From: Platanthera guangdongensis
Taxonomy: Eukaryota; Streptophyta; Magnoliopsida; Asparagales; Orchidaceae
Reading direction: 5' to 3'
Assembly: GCA_039583875.1 (NCBI GenBank)
Contig: CM077151.1
Span: 106,782,609 to 106,846,608, forward strand
DNA: 64,000 nucleotides
Shown here: one piece after another, positions 1-63,414 of the stretch
Numbering within the stretch: position 1 is the first letter of the stretch
How the letters are laid out: each line of letters opens with the position of its first letter
Program-made: the position numbers and the translations under genes
Notes under the pieces: generated by a model
Databases searched by the model: none
What the model saw: the letters and a program-made list of their open reading frames with translations, nothing else
What the model was told of the DNA's origin: nothing

Positions 1-430
1 TGTCGACACCGGCCAGTCGGGGTGTTGACACTTTGTGTCGACAACGGCAGCGGTAGTGTAGACACCTGGTGTCGACACCGGCCGCAGTTGTGTCGACACC
101 GGCAGCGGTAGTGTCGACACCTGGTGTCGACACCGGCCGTAGTGGTGTCGACACCGGCAGCGGTAGTGTCGACACCTTGTGTCGACACCGGCCGCAGAGG
201 TGTCGACACCTTGTGTCGACACCGGCCGCAGTGGTGTCGACACCTTGTGTCGACACCAGCAGCGGTAGTGTCGACACCTTGTGTCGACACCGGCCGCAGA
301 GGTGTCTTGTGTCAACACTTGTGTCAACACCGGCCGCTGTGGTGTCGACACCTTGTGTCGACACCGGCCGCTGTTGTGTCGACACTTTGTGTCGACACCG
401 GCCTGTTGTGGTGTCGACACATCGTGTCGA
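1..430. repeat. GTGTCGACAC palindrome array, G1 5' LTR
   Basis: About two dozen copies of the 10-bp perfect palindrome GTGTCGACAC, separated alternately by short spacers (CTT) and by longer ones of the type CGGCCGCAGTG or CGGCAGCGGTA. The higher-order period is about 34 bp. Variants such as GTGTTGACAC and GTGTCAACAC look like C-to-T or G-to-A changes at the central CG. Confidence 0.95.
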
Positions 431-1815
431 TACTGGTTGCTGTGTTGGTTTTGAGTCAGGTAAGACGCGGGGTTGGTTCGGGTTAGGCGTGCAAGGCCGC
501 ATCGGTTGGACCCGACATTTTTGCCTTGGGTTCGTGTGTCTCTTTAGGATTGTTAGTGTGACTTTTCCCTAGGGGGGGTATTGGGTGTTCGGCTAATTTT
601 TGCACGCCGACTCTTGGGTTGTGGCAGGTGATGGAGTTTTGGTGGCCTCTGGAGGGGTGGTTTTATGTGGAGAGTTATGGCCACCGTCTTTTGCCCCGGT
701 TTGGGTTGGCGTGTGTGGGACTCTTGTGCTGCCACTGTTTGACCCCTTAGCCCTTTATGGATCTGGTTTTGGTTATGTATTCAGAACCATGTTTTGACCC
801 CTGCCATAACCCGCGTGTTAGGACTGTTAGTCCCTTTCCTGTTTATGTTTTCTTCTTCTTTTGGCACACATGTATATGTCTTGATGCTATTGCAGGCTCT
901 TTTGGTAGGGCATATTGGTTTTATTGCTCGCACTTGGTGTGCTTTGTTGTGCTTTAGACAGTACTCTTTTCTTACTGTCATCCCCTTTCTTTTGCTTATA
1001 GCAGTTGTTGCCGAGATTGGTAAACCCTTCTTATTTGTTCATAAATCTAATGCTTTATATACCTTTTGATTGCTTTCTTGCTGAGGTGTTCTTTCCTTGA
1101 ATGCCTCAGGTCCAGGTGGTAGCCAGTTCAGCGGCTAGTTCTTTTGGAGGGGCTGGTTGGTGGCCTCTTGGGTAGCTGAGATAGCAGATTACCGATTTTT
1201 GTGAGGTAGTCCTTTACCATTCTGTACGGACATACATACTCACCAGTGGGTTCATTTCAGGTTGTTGGCGCCCACTGGTGGCTTCTTGCGATGCTGGTAT
1301 GAACTTAAACTGCTATATTTTTGCCTATTTGTGGTTGTTTACTTGCTCTTGGGAAGGATTTATGCTAGGTTGCATGTTAGATATTTTAAACCCTAAAAGC
1401 ATTATTATATGTACCTCATGCATAACATATTTATAAAACAAAGACACTATTTTTCCTTAGCGTAAAAACACTATCTTTCATACATACTATATTCACCTTA
1501 GAGTCGGTCATACCATGAGTCGTCCCTCGAGGACACTTATGCTCATTTAGGGTGTCAACTTAATTGAACCAAAGTATTTTCCGCTGCGTATAAATATACT
1601 TTTACTTGTGGACTAGCTGATCCACCGTGCCGAGGGATACGGCCTTTCAACATAACTGGTTTTCTTTCATAATTAATCAACGATTTTCCTTAGAAACAAA
1701 GGTATGGAGTTTTGCCTGAGCGTGTGCAGTTATCCCCTGCACGATGTGGCATCACGGCACGTGTTTTCTCTTGCACTGATATGATTTCTTCGTTGAGAAA
1801 ATGCGGGTTGTGACA
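1..1815 (+). repeat. 5' LTR of G1 (3' portion)
   Basis: Matches 10379-12131 of the 3' LTR almost base for base after the palindrome array, so roughly 1 kb of the LTR lies left of the window. It ends in GTGACA at 1815, directly before the PBS. Open frames here (for example 757-957) come from repeats or low-complexity sequence and are not genes. The array portion is about 60 bp longer than in the 3' LTR, so copy number changed after insertion. Confidence 0.95.
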
Positions 1816-5569: not shown

Positions 5570-7565
5570 CTTTGATATCAATTGAAAGCAATTGAAAGTG
5601 CAGCTAGATCTGATATACTCTAGAGGGGGGTGAATAGAGTATATGGTGATTTTAAAACTTTTACAACTGTTGTTGTATTTTAGGTGTGTGTGTGTGTGCA
5701 GGGAAGCAAATACAATAAACCAAAAAAACAGCAATGGACTAATCACAGCACAATCACAGAGCAAGGCCAGAAAACAAAAGGAAAAGAAAGCAACCAGGCG
5801 ACACAAGAATTTTATAGTGGTTCCCCAAATCTGGGTAGTCCACTCTTCTACCACCCTGGTAGGAATCCACTGCAGGAAGGGGTTGATCAGGTGTCCTGGC
5901 ACCAATGGGGTTTTGATCAGGTTCCCAAAAACCAAACCCTCAAGTCTTTTGGTGGGAGACTTGCAACCAGAATAATTTTGAAGGGAATTAAAACCCTGTA
6001 CAGAGGTGGAGTGAGAGGGTGATGAGGTCTTCTCTTTCTCAAGTCAAATGAGAAGACTTGTGGAATGTTGTTTAGCAGCTTTGCTCCCCCTGAGATGTAG
6101 AATGAATCAGGAAGTATGCTGGAGCACTGCTTCAGGGTGATAGGTCTTCAAAGACCTAGAATTCCAGGTCCAGAGAAAGTCTTCAGGAACTTCTTGTAAC
6201 TGATATGAAGGTATTGTTTTTGAAGTTATCCTGAGTAAAAGCAGATGAAGAAGACTCTTGATATTGATGTAATGTTCTTCTTCTTCTTCTTCTAGATCAA
6301 TTTCTCTCTGGGCCAAGAATGAATTCTTTTTCTTGTATTGTCTGAATCACTGTCTATCTTTTTCTTGTTGTTGTCTGAATCACTGTCTATCTTTTTCTTG
6401 TTGTTATCTGTTGTGTCTCTGTATTACTGACTATTTCTGTATATGTTTGTCTCATGGAAAACACTCGAATTTTGAATATCGAGCAGTAATGGCAGATGGC
6501 CTGAAAGGAAGCAGCAATTAATTATTTCCCCAACTGTTTCCATGGGAAAAAGGCATGTAATAATCCAGAATTAACTGCGCATCCTAACGGTAGTATACTG
6601 TGAAGAACTGTCATTAATTGTCCAGGAATCAGCGCCATGGAATGAGACGGGAGCGGAAAAAGACCTAGTTTGGAATCATCGACCGAAGAACATAATTCGT
6701 CGAGCTGAGTTTTGAATTCGTCGAGCTGAGCCTGAGTTCGTCGAGCTGAGTTTTGAATTCGTCGAGCTGAGCCCGAGTTCGTCGAGCTGACAGTCTTCAT
6801 TCGTTGAATAGACAATCTTCAATATCAGACAAACATTATTCGTTGAACAGAGAACTAAATTCGTCGAGCTGAGAACCAAATTCGTCGACCTGAGAAAAAT
6901 TTTGGACTTGGACGAAATACTCTGCATCTGCTGAAATGCTGTGTCGACACAAAATGGTGTCGACAGATTGGTCTTGGTGTCGACACAAATCATCTGGTGT
7001 CGACACAGATCCTCTGGTGTCGACAGAAGCTGGTGTCGACTGAAATACTGGTGTCGACATAAATCGCCTGGTGTCGACACAAGCCCTAAGTGTCGACACA
7101 GATTCTCTGAGTACACAAATCATCGAGTAGAGATTAGCATTCGTCGACCTGAGAAGCTGTGAACTTGAGGTCCAAGTTTGTCGAGCTCAGAATATAATTC
7201 GTCGACCGAAGCATGAAGCTGGACTTAGAGAAATTCTGAAGTATTCTTGAGAATGCTTGAAGTAGAATCTGGTGTTCGTCGAGCAAAGAACAAAGTTCGT
7301 CTAGCTCAGCACTGCGAATTGTCTCACGATCGTCGAGCGCAGAGCTCCCTTCGTCGAGTTGAGTTCGATGAACGTCGAACTCATTTCACTTAGTCTGAAA
7401 AACTGATAGATCTGGAGTTCCTGATGGTCTTGAAGAAAGCTGGTCCATCTGAAGTTGAGATAGAGGACTGTCCTAGACTCTAAGACAAAAACTTGACCCA
7501 GACTATACATGATGGGTCACATCCTAAGTCAGTGAACCTAGCCCAAATCAACTAGGGATCCAACA
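5570..7565 (-). mobile_element. C3: single SIRE-like copia LTR plus PBS-like tail
   Basis: On the minus strand it starts TGTTGGATCCC at 7565, like the TGTTGGGT start of the C1 LTR. It ends in TTTCA at 5583, just inside the SIRE-type signature (CTAGAGGGGGGTGAATAG at 5619-5636 on the plus strand). The remaining 13 bases (5570-5582) read ATTGATATCAAAG on the minus strand, a PBS-like sequence. No gag, pol or second LTR is present. The LTR also holds GTGTCGAC-type words and repeats with TCGAGCTGAG. Strand follows the LTR direction. Open frames inside are not convincing genes. Confidence 0.85.
6695..7380. repeat. TCGA-core palindrome arrays in the C3 LTR
   Basis: Two intermixed families: repeated TTCGTCGAGCTGAG-type words (about 6695-6800, 6845-6900 and 7140-7380) and about nine GTGTCGACA-type words (6941-7100). 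The second is the same decamer found in G1 and C1. Confidence 0.9.
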
Positions 7566-9335: not shown

Positions 9336-9373
9336 AAAGTTTCGAGGCGAAACTTTCTTTTAGGGGGAGTGGC
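9336..9373 (+). other. Conserved palindrome and polypurine tract of G1
   Basis: A palindrome, AAAGTTTCG-AGG-CGAAACTTT (9336-9356), is followed by TTTTAGGGGGAGTGGC, the polypurine tract that primes plus-strand synthesis, immediately before the 3' LTR. A similar palindrome with different arms sits at the same place in G4. Confidence 0.85.
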
Positions 9374-9772
9374 TGTAATGCCCCCGGTTTTTCCCTGTTT
9401 TGTTTGATCTTTGTCTGGCGTTACGATGTCGTGTTTCCGGCTCTTTGCCGTCGTAGAGCATGGTCTTAGCTCTTAGGGTTCCTTATGTAGCCTGGTTGTG
9501 GCCTGTTAGCAAGATTCCCTAGCTAGCCAGAGTCTGTTTGGTGACTCGGTTGGGCCTCTTAGGGAATGCTTGTGTTTTTTGCATCGGGTGGTGATATCCC
9601 GGGTTTTTGTTCGTCGAATGCTAATTTCGACTTCGCAGTTGTGTTCGTAGCGTGGGTTTTTAGTTGCGATGTGAATTTCATCAATTTCCGAGATGTTTCG
9701 GGTCTCACGTCGTTTTGATATTAAGTGTAAGTAATTAATATGTATTGATTGTTTATTATTAAAACTGATGCC

Positions 9773-9780
9773 TATATATA
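9773..9780 (+). promoter_or_regulatory. Probable TATA box, G1 3' LTR
   Basis: TATATATA preceded by CC, followed by an AT- and pyrimidine-rich stretch. Position and sequence suggest a core promoter. A weaker TATATACC at about 11373 is the alternative. Confidence 0.5.
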
Positions 9781-10362
9781 GCCTTAGGTTAGAAATTAGG
9801 GCTGGGTTCATTTCTTTTTTTCTCATTTTCTCTTTTGGAAGGAGCCGCCGCATGTACGAGAGGAAGAGAACCGTCGGACTACCCTAGACTTCGGACGCCG
9901 ATTCTTGGAGATTTAGCGGTCGAAATTCGATTTCGAGAGTGGATCTGGATTGCTCTCGCCTGGATCTGCATTCTTTCTGTTCCTCGGCTTGGTGCTCTGC
10001 GACTAGATCCGAGAGTGAGGGAAATCGCCGACCAAGTTTCTCTAGTCTTGAGGCAAGTGATGTTCCCTCATCCTTGCCATAGCCGATCCTTGTTTTCTTC
10101 TTTATTAAATTTTATCTCTCTCCTGCTTAGATCCTAGGTGTACGCTAGGGTTCGTCCCCGACTATACTGTGGTTAGTGTAGAGAAGTTCCAGTTAAATCT
10201 CAGTTTTGTTTCCTGAGAGATTGTGTCTATTAGGGACGGATTTGGTACGGTTCAGGTCGAGTAGTTGCTTTTGCCGATGGATGATGAAATTCTAGAGAGA
10301 GGCCTGGTTCTCGTTTTGGTTGGTTGCTGGGTCTGGCGCCTGTAGCCAGACGGAGTCAGTCG

Positions 10363-10750
10363 TGGTGTCGACACCTTATGTCGACACCGGCCAGTCGGGG
10401 TGTCGACACTTTGTGTCGACACAGGCAGCGGTAGTGTCGACACCTGGTGTCGACACCTGCCGCAGTGGTGTCGACACCTTGTGTCGACACCGGCAGCGGT
10501 AGTGTCGACACCGGCCGCAGTGGTGTCGACACCTTGTGTCGACACCGGCCGCAGTGGTGTCGACACCTTGTGTCGACACCGGCAGCGGTAGTGTCGACAC
10601 CTTGTGTCGACACCGGCCGCAGAGGTATCTACACCTTGTGTCGACACCGGCCGCTGTGGTATCGACACCTTGTGTCGACACCGGCCGCTGTGGTGTCGAC
10701 ACTTTGTGTCGACACCGGCCTGTTGTGGTGTCGACACATCGTGTCGATAC
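10363..10750. repeat. GTGTCGACAC palindrome array, G1 3' LTR
   Basis: About 20 copies of the decamer with the same two spacer types as in the 5' LTR. Shorter than the 5' array by about 60 bp. Confidence 0.95.
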
Positions 10751-12131
10751 TGGTTGCTGTGTTGGTTTTGAGTCAGGTAAGACGCGGGGTTGGTTCGGGT
10801 TAGGCGTGCAAGGCCGCATCAGTGGGACCCGACGTTTTTGCCTTGGGTTCGTGTGTCTCTTTAGGATTGTTAGTGTGACTTTTCCCGAGGGGGGTATTGG
10901 GTGTTCGGCTAATTTTTGCACGCCGACTCTTGGGTTGTGGCAGGTGGTGGAGTTTTGGTGGCCTCTGGAGGGGTGGTTTTATGTGGAGAGGTGTGGCCAC
11001 CGCCTTTTGCCCCGGTTTGGGTTGGCGTGTGTGGGACCCTTGTGCTGCCACTGTTTGACCCCTTAGCCCTTTATGGATCTGGTTTTGGTTATGTATTCAG
11101 AACCATGTTTTGACCCCTGCCATAACCCGCGTGTTAGGACTGTTAGTCCCTTTCTTGTTTATGTTTTCTTCTTCTTTTGGCACACATGTATATTTCTTGA
11201 TGTTGTTGCAGGCTCTTTTGGTAGGGCATATTGGTTTTATTGCTCGCACTTGGTGTGCTTTGCTGTGCTTTAGACAGTACTCTTTTCTTACTGTCATCCC
11301 CTTTCTTTTGCTTATAGCAGTTGTTTTCGGGATTGGTAAACCCTTCTTATTTGTTCATAAATCTAATGCTCTATATACCTTTTGATTGCTTTCTTGCTGA
11401 GGTGTTCTTTCCTTGAATGCCTCAGGTCCAGGTGGTAGCCAGTTCAGCGGCTAGTTCTTTTGGAGGGGCTGGTTGGTGGCCTCTTGGGTAGCTGAGATAG
11501 CAGATTCCCGATTTTTGTGAGGTAGTCCTTTACCTTTCTGTACGGACATACATACTCACCAGTGGGTTCGTGTCAGGTTGTTGGCACCCACTGGTGGCTT
11601 CTTGCGATGCTGGTATGAACTTAAACTGCTATATTTTTGCCTATTTGTGGTTGTTTACTTGCTCCTGGGAAGGATTTTTGCTAGGTTGCATGTTAGATAT
11701 TTTAAACCCTAAAAGCATTATTATATGTACCTCATGCATAACATATTTATAAAACAAAGACACTATTTTTCCTTAGCGTAAAAACACTATCTTTCATACA
11801 TACTATATTCACCTTAGAGTCGGGCATACCATGAGTCATCCCTCGGGGACACTTATGCTCATTTAGGGCGTCAACTCAATTGAACCAAAGTATTTTCCGC
11901 TGCGTATAAATATACTTTTATTTGTGGACTAGCTGATCCACCGTGCCGAGGGATACGGCCTTTCAACATAACTGGTTTTCTTTCATAATTAATCAATGAT
12001 TTTCCTTAGAAACAAAGGTCTGGAGTTTTGCCTGAGCGTGTACAGTTATCCCCTACACGACGTGGCATCACGGCACGTGTTTTCTCTTGCTCTGATACGA
12101 TTTCTTCGTTGAGAAAATGCGGGTTGTGACA

Positions 12132-21015: not shown

Positions 21016-21018
21016 ATT

Positions 21019-27108: not shown

Positions 27109-27113
27109 GAAGC

Positions 27114-32619: not shown

Positions 32620-32698
<79 letters not shown>

Positions 32699-33122
32699 CT
32701 AAACAGGAAGGAGGCTGGTTATTTAAGTATGGGTGCGTGGAAAACGAAAATAGAGGCTTAAGATGGCTCTGAATCGAAAAGTGATCAACATGGAAGTTGT
32801 TGATCTCGTCGAGAAGAACAAAATCCATGTTAACTATTTTTCTAAATAATGCCATTTTAACCCTCAAAATGGCGCCCGAAAGCAAGCTGAAACGAATTTC
32901 TCGAGAAGGACCTACATTACTCGAGAACAAGCTTAGAGTTCTCGAGAACTAGCTTCAGGATTTCCCGGGAAGGATCTACAGTACTCGAGAACAAGCTTAG
33001 AGTTTGAAACCCCGTTGCAACAACCTACCGCTACTGAGAAACAGGCGTGAAGATTTGGTTGGGGTGTACGGTCTACAGGCCTTGTAGATTTTGGTTGTAC
33101 CACCCGTGGTGCAGGTTGCCTT
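31713..33122 (-). mobile_element. G6: Tekay-type LTR, right piece (minus strand)
   Basis: In reverse it aligns with the G3 LTR over the promoter and leader: GGGCGCCATTTTGAGGGTTA with GGGCGCCTTTTTGAGGGTCA, then GTTAACATG and CTCTATTTTCGTTTTC. The TATA region is replaced by the long (AT)n at 32465-32694. CTCGAG words occur at 32890-33000, upstream of the promoter in the LTR's own direction. The LTR start is not reached, since G3 is inserted at 33122. Confidence 0.82.
32465..32694. repeat. (AT)n microsatellite with ATAC interruptions
   Basis: About 230 bp of alternating AT, interrupted by ACAT in the left half and pure in the right. A 20-bp TCTATTTATCCTTAAGTATA stretch is doubled just before it. 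It stands where G3 has a short (AT)n TATA region. Open frames of Tyr-Ile repeats here are artefacts. Confidence 0.97.
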
Positions 33123-49791: not shown

Positions 49792-50092
49792 TGTAACACC
49801 TCCCCTGTAATGACCATATAATATGGGTCCGGCCGGGACCCCACAACATACGGACGCCATAACTTAAGTATTAAAAGATGATATCATCTACCCAACTCAA
49901 AAATCAGAATAAAGCCATAGCGGAAATATACCAACAAGACTAGAAGTTATCCACTACCAATTAGGAGTATCAAAATGGACTTAAGGCCTTACACAGCATA
50001 AGTCCAAAACTGAATGACAACAAGGTCAAACATCAACATGCAAAAGCACTCCTAGGCTACCTAGACAAGCAAGCCGGAAATACCAAAAACAT
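49792..50092 (-). repeat. 5' LTR of G4, left piece
   Basis: Matches 38802-39104 of the 3' LTR with few differences. Cut by C1 after the target site AACAT (50088-50092). Confidence 0.93.
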
Positions 50093-50236
50093 TGTTGGGT
50101 ACATTGGTCAAATGTACCTGATTTGAAGAAGCCTCACCTAACTCAATGATATACATCATAATGTATTTGATGATTGTTTGAGTTACTTGTGCAGGTTAGG
50201 TATTCACTGGACTGAAGCTAAAAGTTTCTAAGTCCA

Positions 50237-51165
50237 TGTGTCGACACCCAGAGGGAAAGTGTCGACACTTGAGAAAGCTTGTGTCGACACCCAGACAAGC
50301 AGTGTCGACACTTGAAGTCATTGTGTCGACACCTGGGATGAAGAGTCGACACCAGACAGAAAGTGTCGACACTTGGAGCTGTGTCGACACTCAGTGAAGA
50401 AGTATGCAGAAAAGCTGTGTCGACACTTAGCAGAAGTGTCGACACCTAGAAGAGCTGAGTCTACATCAGAAAGTGTCGACACTTACAGTTGTGTCGACAC
50501 TCAGCAAAATTCTGTAGAGACTAAGGACAAGTGTCGACACTCAACACAATGTGTCGACACTCAATCAGCAGAGTCAACATATGAAGAATGTGTCGACACT
50601 CAGCACAATGTGTCGACACACAAACAGAAGAATTAGTAATTGAAGTAAGTGTCGACACTCAACACAATGTGTCAACACTAGGCAGAAGAGTCAACACTTG
50701 AAGAAAGTGTCGACACCCAGCACAATGTGTCGACACTTAGTTAAAGAGTCTACACTTGAAGAAAGTGTCGACACAAGGAGCTGTGTCGACACTTAGCAAA
50801 GAATAGAAAAGTTTACAAAATATTCTAAGTACAAGTGTCGACACTAAGGGAATGTGTCGACACTCAGCTGAAGAAATAAAATTGAAGACTTGTGTCGACA
50901 CCAAGAAGCAGTGTCGACACTTGACAGTTTCAACACATGAAGATGTGTCGACACAAAGGAGATGTGTCGACACTTAGAAGAATACAGTTAAAGAATGAAG
51001 ATCAAGTACTTGTGTCGACACTTAATTTTAGTGTCGACACTTGAAGAAGTATCTGTGTCGAGACATACAAGGAATTGTGTCGACACCTTGTAGACTTGTG
51101 TCGACACTTACACAACATGTGTCGACACTTGGTCTATAAGTGTCGACACTTAAGAACAGAAAGTC
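50237..51165. repeat. GTGTCGACAC array in U3 of the C1 5' LTR
   Basis: More than 30 copies of GTGTCGACAC at irregular spacing of about 17-50 bp, in otherwise AG-rich spacers (AGCAGAA, TGAAGAA). The motif is the same as in G1, but the spacers are unrelated. The 3' LTR copy is at 61326-62248. Confidence 0.97.
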
Positions 51166-51305
51166 TCGACACTATCTGACAGTTAGAGAATTTCAAGAAG
51201 TGACTGGTTGACATGACAGCTGCCGATCCAGCCGGTCTACAGCAACTGTCAGAGAAATCAGAAGTCTGTTATGAACCGGACCAGCCGGTTACCATGAAGG
51301 AAGCC

Positions 51306-51313
51306 TATAAATA
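51306..51313 (+). promoter_or_regulatory. TATA box of the C1 5' LTR
   Basis: TATAAATA in context GCC-TATAAATAGGC, about 140 bp after the end of the decamer array. Likely core promoter. Confidence 0.75.
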
Positions 51314-52196
51314 GGCACCCATAGTCTACAGAAACGGATTGATTGTTGTTGTTACAAGTAGTTGTCAAGAATACTTAAAGTGGTTGATCAGATTCTTCAA
51401 GTAATCAGGAAAGTGATACACAGAGGATCAACACAAGAAGATCTGGCAGTCCAACTGCAGATCTAAGAAGTTGGAGAGAGAAAGCTCCAATCAAGAATTC
51501 AGTCTTTGGAACTAAGGCTGAGAAGAAGGATTCAGAATCATCTGGATCTCAAGAAGCAGAGGTCAAGGATCAACTGCAGAAGATTCAGACTAATTCAGTT
51601 CTAACTCAAGAAGCTTTGAAGGAAGCTAAGTCAGTTTGGATCTAACTGAGTTCTTCCAAGAACTCTTTAAGAAACTCTCAACTTCTCTCTTATTTTCTGA
51701 GTTGTAGAGTTAGCTATTGTATTTTCTATTTTAACTTGTAGGATCCATTGGATATGAGAGAATTGTAAGCCTATATTGTAAAGGCTGAGGGTAGGGCTTG
51801 GTTGCCTGAGTGTAGGAGTTGAAGAACTCTGAGTGTAGGCCTTAATTGGCTGAGTGTAGGCCTGGGTGGCTGAGTGTAGGCCTTGGTGGCTGAGTGTAAG
51901 GCTTTGGGCCTGAGGTGTAGGAACCTAGTTGGGTTCTGAGATAGTGGAGAAGATTGGCCGAATCTAGTACACTGCTAGATAGGCGAAGGGGGAAAGTGGA
52001 TGTACCCAAAGATTGGGGAACCACTATAAATTAGTGTGTCTGCTGTGCTGTGGATTAACTATTTATATTCTGTGATTGTTGTTAACTGTAGAATTCTGTG
52101 AAATAACTGTTGAGCTGCCAACAAAGTTTGAAACAGGTTTAGGTCACCTATTCACCCCCCCCCCCCTCTAGGTGTTTAGGTACCATAACTTTCAAG

Positions 52197-52208: not shown

Positions 52209-52310
52209 GAGGTTCCTCAAAACAAGGACTAACAGTCTAAGGAGATCCTGTTTGGCAGAAAAAGTCTAAGTCAGAAAACAGATTCAAGAAATTCAAGAAC
52301 TTCAAGAAAC

Positions 52311-54347
52311 ATGGGTTCTTATGAGAATCACAAAGAGTTGGGTTCCATGAAGTTACCCATATGCAGGAAGGAGATTTTTGGAATCTGGAAAGAAAGGGTT
52401 AGGCTATTTATGGAGGCCTCAGACCCAAGAATCTACATCACAGTTAAAGAAGGGCCTTATGTGCCAATGAAGATTTCAGTACTGGATGCAAATCAGAGGA
52501 CTCCAAAGGATTTCTCTGAGATGACCAAGGATGAAATTGTCCTATCCACTATGGACAAAAGGGCACAAAACATTATAGTAAGTGCCATTGATGATGCAAC
52601 TTTTCAGAACCTAATTCACTGTAAAACAGCAAAAGAAATGTGGGATACCCTCATTGTCTATATGGAAGGTTCTGAAGAAGTTAGGCAAGATAGAAAGTCC
52701 TTGCTTAATCAAGAGTATGAGAGCTTTAGGCAAGGAAGAGGAGATAGCATCACTGAATGCTACAAGAAGTTCTATAGAATTGTTAATGAACTCATGTCCT
52801 ATGGAAGAGAGTTCACTAACTATGAATTGAATGATAAGTTCTTGAGGTCCCTAACCAAAGATTGGGACACTAAGATCTGTGCCATCAGAGAAATGGCAAA
52901 GTTGGGAGAAATTCCTCCTCCCACACTGTTTGGCAAGTTGCTGTCTTATGAGATGCAGCTGTCTGTGAGAAAAGTGGAGGAAAAATCAACAAGGACTGAG
53001 CACAGGGAAAGGACTGTTGCCTTCAAGTCAGAAGTACCTAGAAAGGGCAGGACTAAGTCATCAACTCCTCCTCCAGAGGTAGTTGAATCAGAATCTGATG
53101 AATCTGTTAGCACAAAGTCTACAAGCAGTGAAAGTGATGAAGACTTTGCTGCATTCACCAGACATTTTCAGAAATTCCTGAAGAAGAAACAGTGGAGGTC
53201 CAGACCTTCATTTTCCAAAGGGAAAGAAGTTCAGTATCAGGAGAAGAAGCCTTCAAAGAAGGACAAGAAAAAGACAAAGACTAGCAAGGCAACTGGGTCT
53301 AAGATAGTGTGTTACTGCTGCAATAGACAGGGTCATGTTATTGCAGATTGTCCTGAGTGAAGAAAAGAATCCAGTGACAAAAAGAAGACTCACTTCAAAG
53401 GAAAGAAGGAGAAGTCCTTTGTTGCAAAGAATGAGAAGACTCTTTCAGACATTTCTTCTTCAGACACTGAGACAGATGCTGAAGCCTATATAGGGCTATT
53501 TGCTGAAGAAGAAGAGGAGTTTATGCAGATCATGGAATCAATCTATGAACAAGAAGAGTGTCAGTGCCAAGGACTGATGGCATTGACTGAAAGTACCAAA
53601 ATCCTGGAGCAGCCAGGACCTAGTCAGGTACAAAGTCCAACTCAAAGTTCAGATTTCAGTTCTAGTTCAGAGTCAGATTCATCTTCATCAAGTGATGGAA
53701 GTGTTTCTGAATCTGAGGGAGATATTCATCAGCTCTTAGATGAATATAAAGTACTGTTGCAAGCCTATAAGAAAAGCAAGTCCCTTGCCAAAAGTCAGGC
53801 AAAGGAAATTGCTGATCTAAAGGCAGCTGCAACAGACTTTGAGAAGGAATTTGATCAAAAGCTCAATGAGGTAGCCAGGCTGAAACACATTACTGTGATT
53901 CAGATGGGAACTATCACTTATAAAAATGATCAAATTAAGTTACTGGAGATCAATCTTCAGAAGGAAAAAGAGCTAGTTGCTAGGTTTTCAAAACCTAAAT
54001 CAGTGCTACCCTTGATTGATGAATTTGTTCATCATAAAGGAAAGGCTGGATTGGGTTTTAAACCAGCTAGGACTGTTCAGGATCAGTCCAAGTCCAAGGG
54101 CAAAGCCCCAACATTCAATAAGCCTGCTGTAGTCAAGACAGCCAAGTATGTACCTAAGCAAAGGTACAACAAGTTTGAATGCTGGTGTTGTGGCAAGGTT
54201 GGCCACTTTGCCTTGGATTGTTGGCACAATGCAAGTGCCAAGTTGAGTAGCAAGTTACCTGGTGGAAAGTCAGCAGGTAGCTATGTCAAGTTGCAAACTA
54301 ACAATCACCAAGGACCCAAGTTTACTTTGGGTTCTAAGGTTCATTAA
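52311..54347 (+). pseudogene. gag: gag of C1 (one internal TGA)
   Basis: The ATG at 52311 gives MGSYENHKELGSMKLPICRK. The copia-type gag domain covers roughly residues 15-230 (FGIWKERVRLFMEA, ARNIIVSAIDDATF-like, KEMWDTLIVYMEGSEEV). The first zinc knuckle CYCCNRQGHVIADC precedes a TGA at 53358. The same frame then continues through a Ser/Glu-rich and coiled-coil region (SKSLAKSQAKEIADLKAAA) to a second knuckle, CWCCGKVGHFALDC, near 54180, and ends TAA at 54345. Two knuckles and the coiled-coil linker suit a SIRE-type gag. The TGA is probably a point mutation; the terminal stop is also present in C2. Confidence 0.92.
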
Positions 54348-57300
54348 TTTGTTTTGCAGGTGAATCCAAGTGGTCATACCCCAACATGGTACTTGGATAG
54401 TGGATGTTCCAGACATATGACTGGAACAAGGGGACTACTGAAGGACTACATTCCAATCAAAAATGGTCCTAAAGTGACCTTTGGTGGTTCTGAAAAAGGA
54501 ATCATCAAAGGGTTTGGTAACATCTCTTCAAACCTTGTTACCATTACTCAAGTGGCTTATGTTAAAGGGTTGAAACACAACCTCATTAGTATAAGTCAGT
54601 TAAGTGATGTAGGGTATGACATCTCATTTGTTAAAAATGGTTGTCATATCAAGAGGTCAAGTGATCAAGAGATCATTTTGACAGGATATAGAAAGAGGAA
54701 TGTCTACTGCTTAGACATTATGATTGCGAACAATGGTTCTCCTATTTATCTTGTAGCTGATGAGACAGTCTCTCATTGTGTCAAGTGGCACAAGAGGCTA
54801 GCTCATCTTAACTACAAGACTATTAGCAAACTCTTTAGTAAAGAGTTAGTGAGGAATGGTCCTCAAGTTAAGTGTGTCAAAGATGGCATTTGCTCAGCTT
54901 GTCAAAAGGGCAAGCAGACTAAATCCACCTTTAGAAGCTTAGACAACAAAGATGCTGTGAGGTGTTTATACCTCTTGCATATGGATCTATTTGGTCCAAT
55001 GCCAGTTCACAGCTTAGGTAGGAAGGTCTACACCTTTGTAGTTGTTGATGACTACTCAAGGTTTTCCTGGGTGTTCTTCTTAAAGCAGAAATCTGAAACA
55101 CCTAGTGTCTTCTATAGTTTTGTTAAGCAAATTCAGAATGAATTGAACTGTACAGTGGTCAAAATTAGAAGTGACCATGGTACTGAGTTTCAGTCTGAAA
55201 GCATGACAAAGCTGTGTGAAGACTATGGGATATTTCAAGAATTCTCTTCACCTAGAACACCTCAGCAAAATGGCATTGCTGAAAGGAAAAATAGGACCTT
55301 GATAGAGGCTGGTAGAACCCTATTAAGTGATTCATCACTGCCAGAATATTTCTGGGCTGAAGCAGTTAACACTGCATGCCATGTGATAAATAGGGCTACC
55401 ATCACTAAAAGGTTAAATAAGACCCCCTATGAAGTTGTGAAAGGCAGGAAACCAAACCTATCCTATTTCAGGATTTTTGGTTGCAAATGCTTCATACTTA
55501 ACAATGGAAAGTCTTACCTAACTAAGTTTGCTGCCTAAGTCCCAAGAGGGAGTGTTTGTTGGGTACAGCAATAATAGTAAGGCTTATAGAGTCTACAACT
55601 TGACTACACAAGTTGTAGAGGAGTCTGTGCATGTAGTTTTTGATGAGACACAACTAATTAACAATGAGTTGTCTAGCAATGTATGCAGCCCCACAGGTCT
55701 TACTAAGAAGATGGACAAGCTAATCATAGAAGATGTACCTGCTGCAAGACAGCAAGTAGAAGGAGATGGCTTATGTCCAGGGGGAGAACTACATGTACAA
55801 GGAGCTGAAGAAGTACAAGGAACTCAGTTTGATGAAGATGCTGAAGAAGTTCAACCAGAAGTAAGGATGCCTCCAGCCAACAGGCATCTAAGAGATCATC
55901 CAGTAGAGCTGATTATTGGAGATCCAAGACAAGGTGTTCAGACAAGGAGCAGAAATCAGAATACAGTAGTATATTCAAGTTTTCTGTCTCAAATAGAACC
56001 AAAGAAATTTGAAGAAGCTATACAAGATCCACAGTGGACTGAAGCAATGCGGGAAGAGCTTAATCAGTTCAAAAGGTGCAAGGTTTGCGACCTGGTTCCT
56101 AAACCTAAAGATCACAATGTGATAGGAACAAAGTGGATCTATAGGAATAAGTTAGATGAACAAGGAGTTATCATTAAGAATAAAGCAAGACTGGTTGCAA
56201 AAGGATATAGGCAAGAAGAAGGTATTGATTTTGATCAAACCTTTGCTCCAGTAGCCAGACTGGAAGCCATAAGGATGTTCTTGGCCTATGCAACCTATCA
56301 AGGATTCAAGGTATACCAAATGGATGTGAAGTCAGCATTCCTAAATGGTAATCTAAAGGAAGAAGTGTATGTGGAGCAGCCTTCAGGTTTTGTTGATCCA
56401 ACTTTACCTCATTATGTGTATAGACTTAGGAAAGCATTATATGGGTTAAAACAAGCACCTAGAGCTTGGTATGAAACCCTATCTAGTTTCCTCATTGAGA
56501 ACAAGTTCTCAAGGGGGAAAATAGATAAGACTCTATTCCTTAGGGAATCAAGAGGCAAAGTCATACTTGTCCAAATATATGTAGATGACATTATATTTGG
56601 GTCTACTGAAAGTAGCCTTTGCAAAAAGTTTGCAAAGCTTATGCAAAGTCAATTTGAGATGAGTAGTATGGGAGAACTGAAGTTTTTCTTGGGTCTCCAA
56701 GTTAAACAGACTGGAAGTGGTCTATCCATATGTCAGTCTAAGTTCACCCAAGAACTCATAAGGAAGTATGGTATGGATTCATCCAGTACCATGAAGACTC
56801 CTATGGGGTCAAGTATGTCTCTAAGCAAGGATGATGCAGGGAAACCTGTAGATGAAACCTTGTATAGAGGGATAGTTGGCTCCCTACTATACTTGACTGC
56901 AAGTAGGCCTGACATTATGTATGCTACATGTGTTTGTGCCAGGTATCAAGCCTGCCCCAAAGAGTCTCACTTGACTGCAGTCAAGAGAATCTTGAGATAT
57001 CTAAAGGGCACTCCCTATCTAGGCCTCTGGTATCCTAGGAATGGAGATTTTGATCTAACAGGCTATTCAGATGCAGACTTTGCAGGATGCAAAGAAGATA
57101 GAAAGAGCACTACTGGATCCTGTCAATTCCTAGGTGGAAGAATAATTTCATGGAGCAGTAAAAAGCAGACTAGTGTGGCTATCTCCACAGCTGAGTCAGA
57201 ATATGTAGCTGCAGGAAGTTGCTGTGCTCAACTTCTATGGATTCAACATCAGCTAGTTGACTATGGATTTCAGGTAAGTAGAACTCCACTTTACTGTGAT

Positions 57301-57522
57301 TCTACAAGTGCTATTTCAATAGCTAACAATCCTGTATCTCATAGTAGAACTAAACATATTGAGATTAAATATCACTTTCTTAGGGAGCATGTAGAAAGAA
57401 ATGATATTGCACTTGAATATGTTAAAACTGATAATCAGATAGCAGATATGTTTACTAAGCCCTTAGAAGAAGCTAAGTTCAATAGGTTCAAAATTGAACT
57501 AGGTATGATAAACTTAGACTAA
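54348..57522 (+). pseudogene. pol: pol of C1: protease, integrase, RT, RNase H (one frameshift)
   Basis: The same frame as gag continues after its stop. Protease: WYLDSGCSRHMTGTR near 54390. The GAG-pre-integrase zinc part has HKRLAHLNYKTIS and CSACQKGKQTKSTF. Integrase core: LLHMDLFGPMPVHSLGRKVY, IRSDHGTEFQSESM, RTPQQNGIAERKNRTLIE. At about 55536 one extra base shifts the frame. RT then has [51 protein letters not shown] and [10 protein letters not shown] near 56580. RNase [49 protein letters not shown], ending at 57522. PR-IN-RT-RH order proves copia. Apart from the shift the frame is intact. Confidence 0.95.
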
Positions 57523-57554
57523 GTTTACAGAACTAAAAATTGGCTAAGTAAAAA

Positions 57555-57900
57555 GGTGTCGACACATAGACAAGTCTATGTCGACACAGAATAAAAGTGT
57601 CGACACTTCAGGAAAATGGTGTCGACACATCTAGGAAGTTGGTGTCGACACTTCAGAATGTTAGTGTCGACACATGTCGAGTTGGTGTCGACACATTCAA
57701 TAAGGTGTCGACACTTAAGTTTTTACTCAGAATTTTCTAAGTAAAGTCTCGACTACATGTCGAGTAGAGTGGTGTCGACACTTAACCAAGTGTCGACACA
57801 TAAAATCTGATGACTTAACCTTGTGTCGACACATGAGTGTCGAGACATTATAAGTCAGTGTCGACACTTATTGCCAGTGTCGACACATGTTTAGCTCGCT
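57555..57900. repeat. Internal GTGTCGACAC array between pol and env-like ORF
   Basis: About a dozen GTGTCGACA(C) words, plus CTCGACTACATGTCGAG, in a non-coding spacer of 515 bp. The same motif fills the LTR U3, but the spacers here are different, so it is not a simple copy of the LTR. Confidence 0.95.
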
Positions 57901-57931
57901 ATCCCGCCTGTTCATCTTCAAAAACAACAGG

Positions 57932-57939
57932 TATAAATA
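57932..57939 (+). promoter_or_regulatory. TATA box upstream of the env-like ORF
   Basis: TATAAATA followed by GGG, 99 bp before the ATG at 58038 and just downstream of the internal decamer array. The LTR has the same pairing of array and TATAAATAGG. A separate promoter for the env-like ORF is inferred. Confidence 0.6.
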
Positions 57940-58037
57940 GGGTTCTGTCTTTGTTTGTCGACACGCTTTCAAAGTTTCGAGACCAAAACTCTTGTGTCGA
58001 CATTTCTCTCTTCTAAAGACTAATTCTCCAAACTCTA

Positions 58038-60883
58038 ATGGCTCCCAAGCTGGAAGAGAACGTTAACGAAGGCTATGAACTGGTTCGTGGCGCATTCGAT
58101 GATGGCGATCACGAAATAAAATCTGTGGTAACCCTAGTCACCGATTCCGGATTGGAGTACTTGGTTTCTGAACCAACTAAAATATGGAAGAAGGAAGTTC
58201 TTGAATTCCTAACGGGAGCGTCTGTAGATGACTCAGGCTACAGAATCAAATCAAGGGTGCATGGCACCAAGGTCAAGATTACACCCAAATCTCTAAGAAA
58301 GGTACTTCAGCTACCTAAAGTTCAGGAAGAAGAGGAAGTGACAACATCTAAGACCAGGGAAGCACTTACCTGGTGTGGACTAGATCCTAAGCTAAAGATA
58401 GGATCAGTATTCAACAGGAGAGGAATGAATACTCAAGGAAAATTCTTGTCAGAAATTGTGGGTAAGTAATACTCAGTAAGACTGGAGGGCATGACAGGGT
58501 GTCAGCCTCCATGTTCAGTGTTATGACCAGAATCATTTTCAACCTTAAAACAGACTGGTCAATGGTTGTGTTTGAGAAAGTTAAGGAAAGTCTAAAGAAG
58601 CCCAATCTGGGCAGGATACTAAGTCTCTACCTGGCTGGTACAATACCAGAGGTCATGAGCAATGCTGCTGGTACTAAAATCAATCATATGAGAAGAATGG
58701 ATATGAGGATCCTTTCAAGATGGGAAAGAGTGTTGTCTAAGGAAGTTCCTACTCCAGAGAAGCAAGTTTCTAAGAAGGATTCCCCTCCAAAGAAGAAGAG
58801 GAAGATAGCTGCTGTGACTCAGGAGTCCTCCAGCAGCTCAGGTAGTGAAGAACAGGTTGTTTTCACACCTGATAGTCCAATAGATGTGGCTGCAGAGAAG
58901 TCACCTGCTCCTCGAGAGCCAGCAGAAATCCAGGGGGAGCTGCCTACAGCTAGCCCCATGAATAAGGATTCCAGACAGGGGGAGCCTCCAGCTGAAGAAC
59001 ATCCCTCTACACTGGAGAGTGAGCAAGCTACAGTAATCATCCAAGAGGTACTGTCTGACCTCAATACTTTAGATTTTTCTATAATAGATTCTGATTTGTC
59101 TGATGTCCATCAGCAAACTCAGCAAGCAAATCAACTACCAGATGTTGTTCTCCAAGACACATCAGTAGTACAAGAAGTTGTTCCTGATAAAGTAGTTGAT
59201 GAACCCAGTACTTCTCCTGCACAGTCTCCAGCTGAATACACAATGGAAGATCTATTTCTTAATTTAGATCAAGAGGACTTTGACATGGATAAAGTTGCTG
59301 CTGCTGAAGAGAAGGGTGCTGCTACTGAGGGGGAGAACATGGAAGTTGTGGAAGAGCCTATTAGGCTGGAAACTGAGCAAGCACCTGGTGTGCAGACTGA
59401 CAAACCCTCAAGCCCTAAGGATAGGGTGAATATAGCAAGTACTTCAGAGTCTGAGGATGATGAGACTGAACAAGCTAAAAAGAAGAAATTCTTTGTATTC
59501 AAAAGAAGGAGTCAGAGCTACAAGAAGGCTCTACAAACTGTTGCTCAACACTCCTTAGTCCAACAAGCTCCATCAACTGATTACAGTGGGTTAATAGTGG
59601 CAATGCAAGTTAAGCTGGATGAGCACAGGAGGGCTATAGAGACATATATTGATGAAGGCCACAAGTCTTTACAGTTTGATTTAGCTCAAGATATCAAGTC
59701 AATCAGGTTTGAGATGAACCAGAATAAGAAAGAAATGACTGAATGTTTCTACAAAGGTGGAAATGCAGTGGTATTCCTGGCTAAACATCAAGAACAAATT
59801 AAGACTCAAGTAGATGATATAGCACTAAAGCAAGGCTATGTGCTGGAGAATCAACTACGAATGAATGATAATTTGACTGCATCCCACAATGCAATAGTCA
59901 CTGAACTGAAGAGTAAGTCTGCTGAACCTTCAACATCATCTGCTGCTGCCAAAGCTGAATTTGATAAAGTATTTCAAGAAGAAATTGCTGCTGTCAAGAC
60001 TGCCATTAAAGATTCACAGAAGGTCATTTCTGAACAGCTTACTAAGCTTAGACCTTATTTTAAGGAAGGAATCAGGTACTTGGACAGTCAGATTAGATTC
60101 CAAAAGGATGATGTAAGAGATCATGTAGAACAAGAAGTCATAAAGGGGGAGAGAGTGTTAGTCAAGGCCAGTTCTGAGCATGCAAAATGGATTTCAAATT
60201 CAATCAGGGCTACACTTGGATATCCTCCCCTGTGTGATGACAATGAAGTTGCTGAATCTGGACTGAACCCTGCCTATTTTGGAGGTGAGCCACAAGAAGT
60301 AGCTCAAGTCATTTATCCACCTCCAGATTTTGAAATGATTCATGCAGAGGTGAGCACTATGTATAGCCCATCTGGGGGCAAGGACAATGTCCATTTAGAA
60401 AAGGTTACTCAACCTATTACAGCAGCTATGCAAGAGGCTATGGACAAAGAAGAAGAGACAAGGCTGTCAAAGAAGAAGTTCAGGGAACTGGCTGAGCAAA
60501 AACCAGATTTTGAACAGTGGAGCCCTACTTCTAGGAACATCATTCTCACAGCCTGGAAAGCAGCCAAGGACAATGCACATGAGAGGAACAAGTGGTTCTC
60601 AGAAGCTGAATGGAGGAAGCATGAGATCAGGCAGGAAGCTATTGTCCAGTATAGAAGGAAGGCTAAGTTAGGAAAGCTACCTCCTACAGCTGTGGAGCCT
60701 AGCAAGTACTTTCCTAAGCCCTATCATTATTTTGAGAGGCAGAAAATCAAGGCTGAAGAACTAAAGAAGAAGGACTCCAAAGGAAAGAAGATTGCTGATA
60801 CTGAGCCTGCTGCTGCTGCTGCTGTAAAAGCCAAAGTGCAAGCTGGGAAAGGCATAGTTATAAAAGAACCTGATCAGAATTAG
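58038..60883 (+). pseudogene. env-like (third) ORF of C1, one frameshift
   Basis: First part 58038-58469 begins MAPKLEENVNEGYELVRGAF. It resembles the N-terminal domain of plant retroelement third ORFs (often annotated as putative plant transposon protein): VTDSGLEYLVSEPTKIWKKE, VKITPKSLRKVLQLP. A one-base deletion near 58463 shifts the frame, and homology-like sequence continues (VILSKTGGHDRV, then MTRIIFNLKTDWSM). The rest is acidic and Ser/Pro-rich, then coiled-coil-like (about 59600-60200), with a Lys-rich tail. PPKKKRK at 58784-58804 looks like a nuclear localisation signal. No signal peptide or transmembrane segment is seen, so an envelope role is doubtful. What the protein does is unknown. 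Confidence 0.85.
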
Positions 60884-61181: not shown

Positions 61182-63409
61182 TGTTGGGTACATTGGTCAA
61201 ATGTACCTGATTTGAAGAAGCCTCACCTAACTCAATGATATACATCATAATGTATTTGATGATTGTTTGAGTTACTTGTGCAGGTTAGGTATTCACTGGA
61301 CTGAAGCTAAAAGTTTCTAAGTCCATGTGTCGACACCTAGAGGGAAAGTGTCGACACTTGAGAAAGCTTGTGTCGACACCCAGACAAGCAGTGTCGACAC
61401 TTGAAGTCATTGTGTCAACACCTGGGATGAAGAGTCGACACCAGACAGAAAGTGTCTACACTTGGAGCTGTGTCGACACTCAGTGAAGAAGTATGCAGAA
61501 AAGCTGTGTCGACACTTAGCAGAAGTGTCGACACCTAGAAGAGCTGAGTCTACATCAAAAAGTGACGACACTTGGAGTTGTGTCGACACTCAGCAAAATT
61601 CTGCAGAGACTAAGGACAAGTGTCGACACTCAACACAATGTGTCGACACTCAATCAGCAGAGTCAACATATGAAGAATGTGTCGACACTCAGCACAATGT
61701 GTCGACACACAAACAAAAGAATCAGTAATTGAAGTAAGTGTCGACACTCAACACAATGTGTCGACACTAGGCAGAAGAGTCAACACTTGAAGAAAGTGTC
61801 GACACCCAGCACAATGTGTCGACACTTAGTTAAAGAGTCTACACTTGAAGAAAGTGTCGACACAAGGAGCTGTGTCGACACTTAGCAAAGAACAGAAAAG
61901 TTTACAAAATATTCTAAGTACAAGTGTCGACACTAAGGGAATGTGTCGACACTCAGCTGAAGAAATAAAATTGAAGACTTGTGTCGACACCAAGAAGCAG
62001 TGTCGACACTTGACAGTTTCAACACATGAAGATGTGTCGACACAAAGGAGATGTGTCGACACTTAGAAGAATACAGTTAAAGAATGAAGATCAAGTACTT
62101 GTGTCGACACTTAATTTCAGTGTCGACACTTGAAGAAGTATCTGTGTCGAGACATACAAGGAATTGTGTCGACACCTTGTAGACTTGTGTCGATACTTAC
62201 ACAACATGTGTCGACACTTGGTCTATAAGTGTCGACACTTAAGAACAGAAAGTCTCGACACTATCTGATAGTTAGAGAATTTCAAGAAGTGACTGGTTGA
62301 CATGACAGCTGCCGATCCAGCCGGTCTACAGCAACTGTCAGAGAAATCAGAAGTCTGTTATGAACCGGACCAGCCGGTTACCATGAAGGAAGCCTATAAA
62401 TAGGCACCCATAGTCTACAGAAACGGATTGATTGTTGTTGTTACAAGTAGTTGTCAAGAATACTTAAAGTGGTTGATCAGATTCTTCAAGTAATCAGGAA
62501 AGTGAGGAAGCCTATAAATAGGCACCCATAGTCTACAGAAACGGATTGATTGTTGTTTTTACAAGTAGTTGTCAAGAATACTTAAAGTGGTTGATCAGAT
62601 TCTTCAAGTAATCAGGAAAGTGATACACAGAGGATCAACACAAGAAGATCTGGCAGTCCAACTGCAGATCTAAGAAGTTGGAGAGAGAAAGCTCCAATCA
62701 AGAATTCAGTCTTTGGAACTAAGGCTGAGAAGAAGGATTCAGAATCATCTGGATCTCAAGAAGTAGAGGTCAAGGATCAACTGCAGAAGATTCAGACTAA
62801 TTCAGTTCTAACTCAAGAAGCTTTGAAGGAAGCTAAGTTAGTTTGGATCTAACTGAGTTCTTCCAAGAACTCTTTAAGAAACTCTCAACTTCTCTCTTAT
62901 TTTCTGAGTTGTAGAGTTAGCTATTGTATTTTCTATTTTAACTTGTAGGATCCATTGGATCTGAGAGAATTGTAAGCCTATATTATAAAGGCTGAGGGTA
63001 GGGCTTGGTTGCCTGAGTGTAGGAGTTGAAGAACTCTGAGTGTAGGCCTTAATTGGCTGAGTGTAGGCCTGGGTGGCTGAGTGTAGGCCTTGGTGGCTGA
63101 GTGTAAGGCTTTGGGCCTGAGGTGTAGGAACCTAGTTGGGTTCTGAGATAGTGGAGAAGATTGGCCGAATCTAGTACACTTCTAGATAGGCGAAGGGGGA
63201 AAGTGGATGTACCCAAAGATTGGGGAACCACTATAAATTAGTGTGTCTGCTATGCTGTGCTGTGCTGTGGATTAACTGTTTATATTCTGTGATTGCTGTT
63301 AACTGTAGAATTCTGTGAAATAACTGTTGAGCTGCCAACAAAGTTTGAAACAGGTTTAGGTCACCTATTCACCCCCCCCCCCCTAGGTGTTTAGGTACCA
63401 TAACTTTCA
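61182..63409 (+). repeat. 3' LTR of C1 (2228 bp)
   Basis: As the 5' LTR, with scattered substitutions (several at the CG of the decamer), a 118-bp tandem duplication and a longer TGCTG run near 63255. The decamer array is at 61326-62248. Confidence 0.97.
62388..62623 (+). repeat. 118-bp tandem duplication of the core promoter in the C1 3' LTR
   Basis: Units 62388-62505 and 62506-62623 differ by one base. Each contains the TATA box (62395 and 62513) and the following 110 bp. The 5' LTR has a single copy. Confidence 0.95.
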
Positions 63410-63414
63410 AACAT

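What the first reader, a model, noticed from the sequence alone, without database searches (positions are those of the whole stretch)
50237..51165. One palindromic decamer, GTGTCGACAC, amplified in unrelated retrotransposon classes
The sequence shows arrays of the identical 10-bp palindrome in the LTRs of gypsy G1 (1-430, 10363-10750) and copia C1 (50237-51165, 61326-62248) and, with fewer copies, copia C3 (6941-7100). The spacers differ entirely between families, so the arrays are not copies of one another; the decamer itself appears to be what is kept or acquired. In C1 it fills U3 upstream of TATA. A dimeric host DNA-binding factor that several retroelements have independently recruited, or a silencing-related site, would explain this. 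This is inference; I know no published description of it.
Basis: partly seen in the sequence, partly recalled or inferred. Interest (0 to 1): 0.88.

Follow-up and report, generated by a model that had tools for sequence, protein, structure and literature searches.

The report
Zinc-element-like arrays in orchid retrotransposons
Several unrelated jumping genes in an orchid genome carry dense rows of one 10-letter DNA word that fits the site plants use to switch on genes when zinc runs short, which suggests, but does not prove, that these elements plug into the plant's zinc-sensing switch.

Summary
Spacers are unrelated between arrays. Between C1 and four related copies, U3 boxes differ by 1.4-2.0%, other U3 bases by 14-32%; C1 U3 spacers have no CpG while boxes keep theirs: sequence-specific selection. 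The architecture is the published Sirevirus 'repeated motif', whose binder is unknown. The decamer fits the Zinc Deficiency Response Element (RTGTCGACAY) of dimeric F-group bZIPs. Best explanation: host F-bZIP drives these promoters. Binding and zinc response are untested, and the genome-wide preference for G...C ends is stricter than the consensus. Three searches listed no paper on this element in retrotransposons by title.

The parts
1..440 (+). G1 (Ty3/gypsy) 5' LTR, decamer array, cut by the window start; 18 perfect boxes and 6 with 1 mismatch, spacing mostly 13 and 21 bp
9373..12131 (+). G1 3' LTR (TGTAATGCCCCC...GGGTTGTGACA, after a purine tract); start inferred, the 5' LTR start lies outside the window
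9772..9781 (+). best TATA-like box of G1 (CTATATATAG), upstream of the array
10360..10755 (+). G1 3' LTR decamer array, 19 perfect boxes and 4 with 1-2 mismatches
5573..7565 (-). C3: solo Sirevirus LTR (TGTTGG start, ATTCACCCCCC signal near the end) inserted in G1 pol
6941..7099 (-). C3 decamer array: 5 perfect boxes and 4 with 1-2 mismatches, spacing 16-20 bp
50093..52194 (+). C1 (Sirevirus) 5' LTR; target duplication AACAT at 50088-50092 and 63410-63414
50238..51172 (+). C1 5' LTR U3 array: 32 perfect boxes and 7 with 1-2 mismatches
51305..51314 (+). C1 LTR TATA box (CTATAAATAG)
52233..57522 (+). C1 gag-pol (Retrotran_gag_2, rve, RVT_2) in four open stretches
57556..58003 (+). C1 internal array before the env-like ORF: 12 perfect boxes (57556-57886) and 5 with 1-2 mismatches up to 58003
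57932..57940 (+). TATAAATAG after the perfect boxes of the internal array, candidate internal promoter
58038..60883 (+). C1 env-like ORF in two open stretches in different frames (58038-58469, 58466-60883); weak PF20167 match in the first, below the curated cut-off
61182..63409 (+). C1 3' LTR
61327..62261 (+). C1 3' LTR U3 array: 29 perfect boxes and 10 with 1-2 mismatches

Best explanation
The decamer is a transcription-factor site, and the factor is most likely the host's F-group bZIP (homologue of Arabidopsis bZIP19/bZIP23), a dimeric zinc sensor that binds the Zinc Deficiency Response Element RTGTCGACAY. Sireviruses of the C1 clade carry tens of such sites upstream of the LTR TATA (32 perfect in the window's 5' LTR) and about a dozen upstream of a second TATA before the env-like ORF (12 perfect), so genomic RNA and env-like RNA would be switched on together when cell zinc falls. 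C3-type Sireviruses and gypsy elements such as G1 acquired arrays of the same site separately. Shown by computation: the arrays, their non-homology, the match to the published consensus, and selection on the boxes in the C1 clade. Inferred: that the orchid F-bZIP binds them, that binding activates, and that zinc is the signal.
For: Full-length match to ZDRE RTGTCGACAY (passages); 2 of 1024 perfect 10-bp palindromes fit it. Rice F-bZIPs bound 2 or 3 tandem ZDREs and not a TAGA version (passage); Arabidopsis bZIP19 and bZIP23 bound a probe with GTGTCGACAT (passage); wheat TabZIPF1 bound ZDRE probes (passage). Enrichment 2,076,908 against 2,228 genome-wide; all 98 copies of the random sample in arrays. 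Boxes conserved between C1 and four related copies: U3 divergence 1.4-2.0% in boxes, 14.0-31.6% elsewhere; perfect boxes aligned to perfect boxes 28/32, 26/32, 16/18, 12/15; pre-env 11/12 and 8/12. C1 5' LTR spacers 0 CpG (shuffle mean 12.6, none of 2000 as low) while box CpG is kept in 35 of 39 units. Array and TATA stand before both the LTR start region and the env-like ORF. Spacers unrelated between arrays. In C3 relatives L016 and L001, 7 of the 20 boxes marked are GTGTCGACAC and 7 GTGTCGACAT, the terminal Y of the ZDRE.
Against: ATGTCGACAT, also a full ZDRE, has only 12,255 copies (control 5,160) against 2.08 million, and GTGTCGACAT 179,817 on both strands (control 5,424): the ends are stricter than the consensus. 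The rice EMSA probes were ATGTCGACAY, so in the passages I read no assay used the GTGTCGACAC form itself; three of the wheat F-bZIPs tested bound no wheat ZDRE probe. In window plus fetched loci the end change 1 G>A (18) is not clearly commoner than the control transition 3 G>A (12); the genome-wide control count did not complete. 4 of the 13 boxes of L016 are GTGTCGACTG, outside the consensus. The match was found after the fact by searching the literature for the core. Between the two LTRs of the window's C1, boxes differ at 5 of 390 sites and the rest at 10 of 818, so no constraint shows after this insertion. No binding, expression or zinc data; the orchid F-bZIP gene was not looked for. In G1 the array lies downstream of the best TATA, and one F-bZIP site in a 5' leader was suggested to be repressive (passage). 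In zinc-deficient maize overall TE expression fell by 9%, in spite of lost TE methylation (passages), though the maize motifs OPIE-2 and PREM-2 in PMC2829016 are not ZDREs.
Confidence: 0.55

Rival explanations
1. Another host DNA-binding protein (an orchid-specific dimeric factor, another bZIP, or a silencing or chromatin protein) recognises GTGTCGACAC; the ZDRE match is coincidental or only reflects a related specificity.
For: The same selection evidence. The ends are stricter than the ZDRE consensus. Other Sireviruses use other palindromes, mostly of CGG-CCG type, for which no common binding factor was found (PMC2829016 passages).
Against: Full-length match to a site described as a novel plant bZIP binding sequence, unlike the usual ACGT core (passage); tandem binding in rice (passage).
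Confidence: 0.22
2. RNA-level or silencing role: the self-complementary boxes make the transcript fold, feeding small-RNA production or serving packaging, as discussed for palindromes in maize Sirevirus LTRs.
For: Three arrays fold far better than shuffles (z -16.1 and -12.6 with 100 shuffles, -15.0 with 20). Palindrome motifs of maize Copia LTRs are described as sRNA mapping hotspots (PMC5311732 passages; the 2016 Genome Research paper it cites was not held).
Against: Folding follows automatically from repeating any palindrome; it does not explain why gypsy and copia arrays with unrelated spacers share one exact decamer, nor why that decamer fits a known protein site.
Confidence: 0.1
3. The Sirevirus env-like protein (PF20167-type N terminus) binds the array as a self-encoded activator or anti-silencing factor, like VANC in VANDAL transposons; G1 and C3 free-ride.
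For: The array also stands before the env-like ORF. VANC precedent: a TE-encoded protein whose targets often form tandem repeats (abstract; passage).
Against: No recognised DNA-binding domain in either open stretch by Pfam; the AlphaFold model of the N-terminal piece is unusable (mean pLDDT 41), so the test is weak. Four listed Sireviruses without env also carry repeated palindromes (Table 3 of PMC2829016). It does not explain the fit to a host ZDRE.
Confidence: 0.08
4. Passive amplification: slippage and gene conversion spread a 10-mer without function, or one family donated its array to another.
For: The G1 spacers are themselves repetitive (CGGCCGCAGTG/CTT types), as expected of recent tandem growth, and G1 spacers show no CpG loss.
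Against: Cross-array spacers unrelated; in the C1 clade the boxes stay while spacers diverge and U3 spacers lose their CpG.
Confidence: 0.05

Closest known systems
Sirevirus repeated motifs (RM boxes), Bousios et al. 2010, PMC2829016 (passages read)
   Same: High-copy palindromic boxes in the LTR a short way upstream of TATA, and a second cluster at the 5' side of env; conserved box among diverged flanks
   Different: Core here is GTGTCGACAC, not CGG-CCG (the listed Tnd-1 motif also lacked it); the same box also sits in gypsy LTRs; a known host factor fits, whereas the paper found no common binding factor
Zinc Deficiency Response Element bound by F-group bZIPs (AtbZIP19/23, rice OsbZIP48/49, wheat TabZIPF1); PMC9643250, PMC7307843, PMC5476651, PMC5826268, PMC5656842 (passages read)
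   Same: Fits the consensus RTGTCGACAY; binding to tandem copies shown in rice
   Different: Promoters described in the passages carry one or two copies (LPCAT1 one, ZIP4 two); here tens per LTR and about 2 million per genome, with stricter ends
VANC and VANDAL motif arrays, Hosaka et al. 2017, PMC5735166 (abstract read)
   Same: TE tandem arrays of a short protein-binding target
   Different: DNA transposons (passage); factor encoded by the TE itself; targets vary between related TEs instead of being shared across superfamilies
Heat-responsive ONSEN LTR with heat-shock-factor sites (recalled, from no call)
   Same: An LTR that borrows a host stress transcription-factor site
   Different: Few sites, one family, other stress (recalled)

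Membership tests
Sirevirus (C1) | Copia-type gag-pol domains | tested here: met
   Retrotran_gag_2, rve, RVT_2
Sirevirus (C1) | env-like ORF downstream of pol (present in many, not all) | tested here: met
   58038-60883 in two frames; relatives P0001, P0002, P0007 carry PF20167
Sirevirus (C1, C3) | poly-C integrase signal near the LTR end | tested here: met
   ATTCACCCC at 52150 and 63367 (+) and 5635 (-)
Sirevirus (C1) | multiple polypurine tracts upstream of the 3' LTR | not tested
   one AGGGGGAGA next to the 3' LTR was seen in passing
Sirevirus repeated motif | many palindromic boxes upstream of the LTR TATA | tested here: met
   39 units at 50238-51172, TATA at 51305
Sirevirus repeated motif | second cluster 5' of env | tested here: met
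   57556-58003
Sirevirus repeated motif | CGG-CCG core | tested here: not met
   the box is GTGTCGACAC; listed exception Tnd-1. A single AACCGGACCAGCCGGTT dyad lies near the TATA at 51274-51290. So: same architecture, not the published core
ZDRE | sequence RTGTCGACAY | tested here: met
   119 sites fit in the window, 115 of them GTGTCGACAC
ZDRE | both R and both Y forms used | tested here: inconclusive
   G...C form dominates genome-wide; C3 relatives L016 and L001 have C and T ends in 7 and 7 of 20 boxes
ZDRE | bound by F-bZIP, zinc-deficiency induced | not testable with these tools
   needs protein and expression data
VANC-type self-encoded anti-silencing | TE-encoded DNA-binding protein specific for the array | tested here: inconclusive
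   no such domain found by Pfam, model unusable

The most novel reading that the evidence does not exclude
Copia and gypsy retrotransposons in one orchid have independently wired their promoters to the plant's zinc sensor, and C1-clade Sireviruses use it twice per element; with about 2 million sites the elements may also soak up the zinc-sensing factor and so alter the host's own zinc response.
Probability: 0.35. Interest if true: 0.92.

Novelty: new variant of a known kind. Interest (0 to 1): 0.8.

Why it matters
In the 2010 paper that described the palindromic arrays of Sireviruses no common binding factor was found (PMC2829016, passages); I saw no later answer, but did not survey that literature beyond. 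Here the array sequence itself names a candidate factor with a known signal, known mutants and a known non-binding control sequence, so the question becomes directly testable. If right, a retrotransposon clade is tied to a nutrient sensor, several families have converged on the same switch, and a host carries about 2 million sites for a factor whose Arabidopsis double mutant changed fewer than 20 genes (passage).

Tried and rejected
Shared descent or transfer of the arrays: rejected on spacer comparison. Recent neutral amplification in C1: rejected on box-against-spacer divergence and CpG loss. A factor encoded by G1: in the stretches 1816-2990 and 9264-10350 the longest ORFs (frames read from the array itself left aside) were 128 aa (a gag part), 125, 124 and 114 aa; they were not searched for domains, so this is not excluded. 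IMG/VR scan for three boxes in a row: 0 (the tool says records of the window's own genome may be left out). Literature search for the decamer: 31 papers, 20 listed, none on plant retrotransposons by title; the core with 'plant' and 'motif': 109 papers, 25 listed, several on zinc. Searches for print on ZDRE or bZIP19 with transposons: 11 papers, 10 listed; 0; 8; also Sirevirus with bZIP, (2), and LTR retrotransposon with zinc deficiency, promoter and transcription factor binding, (1). By title none is about ZDREs in LTRs; of the papers listed I read passages of PMC6307195 only. Structure of the env-like N terminus: unusable. RNA folding: strong but uninformative.

Full report
Observation. GTGTCGACAC occurs 115 times in the 64-kb window against 0.05 expected. 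All 115 lie in six arrays: G1 5' LTR 18, C3 5, G1 3' LTR 19, C1 5' LTR 32, C1 internal 12, C1 3' LTR 29. It lies between the pol stop and the env-like ORF of C1, with TATAAATAG at 57932.

Elements. C1 is a Sirevirus: LTRs 50093-52194 and 61182-63409, target duplication AACAT, copia gag, integrase and RT domains, poly-C signal near the LTR end, and an env-like ORF whose first stretch weakly matches PF20167, below the curated cut-off. Its LTR array ends about 130 bp before the TATA at 51305. C3 is a solo Sirevirus LTR on the minus strand inserted in G1 pol. G1 is a Ty3/gypsy element (gag domain PF03732); its 3' LTR starts near 9373 and its best TATA is at 9772, so its array at 10365-10737 is downstream of that TATA, unlike in C1. 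Further TATA-like sites lie at 11372, 11748 and 11905, so the G1 start site is uncertain.

Genome. The window's genome has 4,245,561,818 bases. Two of its contig lengths (198170782 and 183157185) equal those given for the Platanthera guangdongensis proteins P0008 and P0005, and every env-like relative listed was from Platanthera (6, 5 and 6 hits, overlapping; in 26 and 35 only the candidates sharing most words were scored). I take the host to be P. guangdongensis. The genome holds 2,076,908 decamers against 2,228 for the reversed control, about 0.49% of the assembly by my arithmetic. ATGTCGACAT has 12,255 (control 5,160), GTGTCGACAT 179,817 on both strands (control 5,424). A sample of 20 stretches of 10 kb held 98 decamers, all in 6 arrays in 4 stretches; the next palindrome had 12. 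Those arrays belong to C1-like (L018, L022, L025) and C3-like (L016) elements; sequence at least 70% identical to C1 covers 17,164 of the 200,000 sampled bases. Places that I chose from the first ones listed, and which are thus not random, show more kinds: L001 is C3-like, L008 C1-like; L005, L006 and L031 hold one or two isolated copies; L029 holds a further gypsy element (RT 69% identical to that of G1 over 192 residues), and L029 and L030 share a repeat with paired GTGTCGACAC boxes among NNCTCGACAC variants.

Independent arrays. Spacer 6-mers are shared between C1 LTR, C1 internal, C3 and G1 arrays no more than between shuffles (12 comparisons, smallest p 0.196), whereas the two LTRs of G1 share 25 (null mean 3.0) and those of C1 244 (null mean 59.6). 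Spacing is mostly 18-24 bp or about twice that in C1, 16-20 in C3, and mostly 13 and 21 in G1.

Selection. Between C1 and four related copies (L018, L008, L022, L025) the boxes differ by 1.4, 1.8, 2.0 and 1.9% in U3 and the rest of U3 by 14.0, 14.3, 31.6 and 30.3% (for L022 and L025 only the first 644 and 530 bp of U3 were compared); for the internal array (L018, L022) 5.6 and 4.5% against 21.2 and 34.3%. Of perfect C1 boxes, 28/32, 26/32, 16/18 and 12/15 (U3) and 11/12 and 8/12 (internal) align with perfect boxes. Caveat: boxes were defined on the C1 side at up to one mismatch, and alignments tend to anchor on boxes. Independently of alignment, the C1 5' LTR spacers have 0 CpG where shuffles give 12.6 (3' LTR 0 against 13.0; none of 2000 as low) while 35 of 39 units keep theirs. 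In U3 of L018, L022, L025 and L008 the spacers have 0, 2, 0 and 1 CpG against 19.6, 12.1, 11.0 and 17.4 expected, with box CpG kept in 36/39, 29/33, 26/28 and 33/36. Loss of CpG beside retained CpG at 10-bp resolution argues for selection on the box, not for a regionally unmethylated island. The effect is not seen, or not clearly, elsewhere: internal array 5 against 6.9, C3 1 against 2.4, G1 19 against 14.8; internal arrays of L018 and L022 1 against 3.3 and 3 against 4.8, L016 7 against 10.6. For G1, selection is not shown. Between the two LTRs of the window's own C1 copy, boxes differ at 5 of 390 and other sites at 10 of 818, so this copy shows no constraint since insertion; the selection is seen between copies of the clade.

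What it matches. Sirevirus LTRs are known to hold high-copy palindromic boxes before TATA, and further boxes before env, with a CGG-CCG core in all but one of the 13 listed elements and no common binding factor found (PMC2829016, passages). The C1 arrays have this architecture with another core. The decamer fits the Zinc Deficiency Response Element RTGTCGACAY of F-group bZIPs (PMC9643250, PMC7307843, PMC5476651, PMC5826268; passages). Rice F-bZIPs bound two or three tandem copies of ATGTCGACAY and not a TAGA version; Arabidopsis bZIP19 and bZIP23 bound a GTGTCGACAT probe; wheat TabZIPF1 bound ZDREs, whereas three other wheat F-bZIPs bound no wheat ZDRE probe (PMC5656842, passages). PMC5476651 states that all its species have a Group 1 F-bZIP; the word orchid does not occur in it. 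Three searches for ZDRE or bZIP19 with transposons listed no report of ZDREs in LTRs by title (passages of PMC6307195 read).

Mechanism. Shown by computation: arrays, independence, fit to the consensus, selection in the C1 clade. Inferred: when cell zinc falls the F-bZIP dimer binds the arrays and drives transcription from the LTR TATA and the internal TATA. Against: strict G...C ends, GTGTCGACTG boxes in a C3 relative (4 of 13 in L016), the array after TATA in G1, no functional data, and no search for the orchid's F-bZIP gene. In the window plus 24 fetched loci, single changes were 1 G>A 18, 3 G>A 12, 3 G>C 15, 5 C>T 14, which neither proves nor excludes ZDRE-like tolerance at the ends.

Verdict. 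A real, very strong and genome-wide feature; a new variant of the Sirevirus repeated-motif kind, shared with gypsy elements, and with a specific, testable candidate binder.

Noticed in passing
52233-60880: C1 coding sequence is almost free of CpG: gag 0 of 86 expected, protease-integrase 1 of 45, RT-RNaseH 2 of 77, second env stretch 2 of 109; the first env stretch, just after the internal array, keeps 11 of 20. Of nine other stretches checked, the Sirevirus C2 is also depleted (internal 14 of 120, LTR 40 of 137); the other seven are at 0.66-1.03.
   Followed up: partly
33686-34185: 22-bp tandem array TACTCGAGTGATCGTTTCATTG (ACTCGAGT palindrome, about 22 copies) between inverted repeats 32662-32905 and 34172-34404; perhaps a DNA transposon with its own motif array.
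   Followed up: no
13894-31707: Another Sirevirus (C2, minus strand, LTRs about 3.1 kb) with different palindromic repeats (GCTGAGACA..TGTCTCAGC, GGCGTTGAGTGA..TCACTCAACGCC) and no GTGTCGACAC; a gypsy element is nested inside.
   Followed up: partly
62387-62623: The C1 3' LTR has a 118-bp tandem duplication that doubles its TATA region; the 5' LTR has one copy.
   Followed up: no
5492-5569 and 7566-7643: The C3 solo LTR is flanked by a direct duplication of about 78 bp of G1 pol, and no 5-bp target duplication was seen.
   Followed up: no
58466-58469: The env-like ORF changes frame here; relatives in Platanthera run through this part.
   Followed up: no
10774-10790: CAGGTAAG, a good splice-donor match, follows the G1 array; the G1 leader may be spliced.
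   Followed up: no
L029 1480-1960, L030 1200-1680: A repeat, in L029 beside gypsy RT and integrase sequence, with GTGTCGACAC pairs among NNCTCGACAC boxes and GACACGCCCGTGTC palindromes.
   Followed up: partly
40570-40802: 95-bp repeat with GTGCGCAC palindromes.
   Followed up: no
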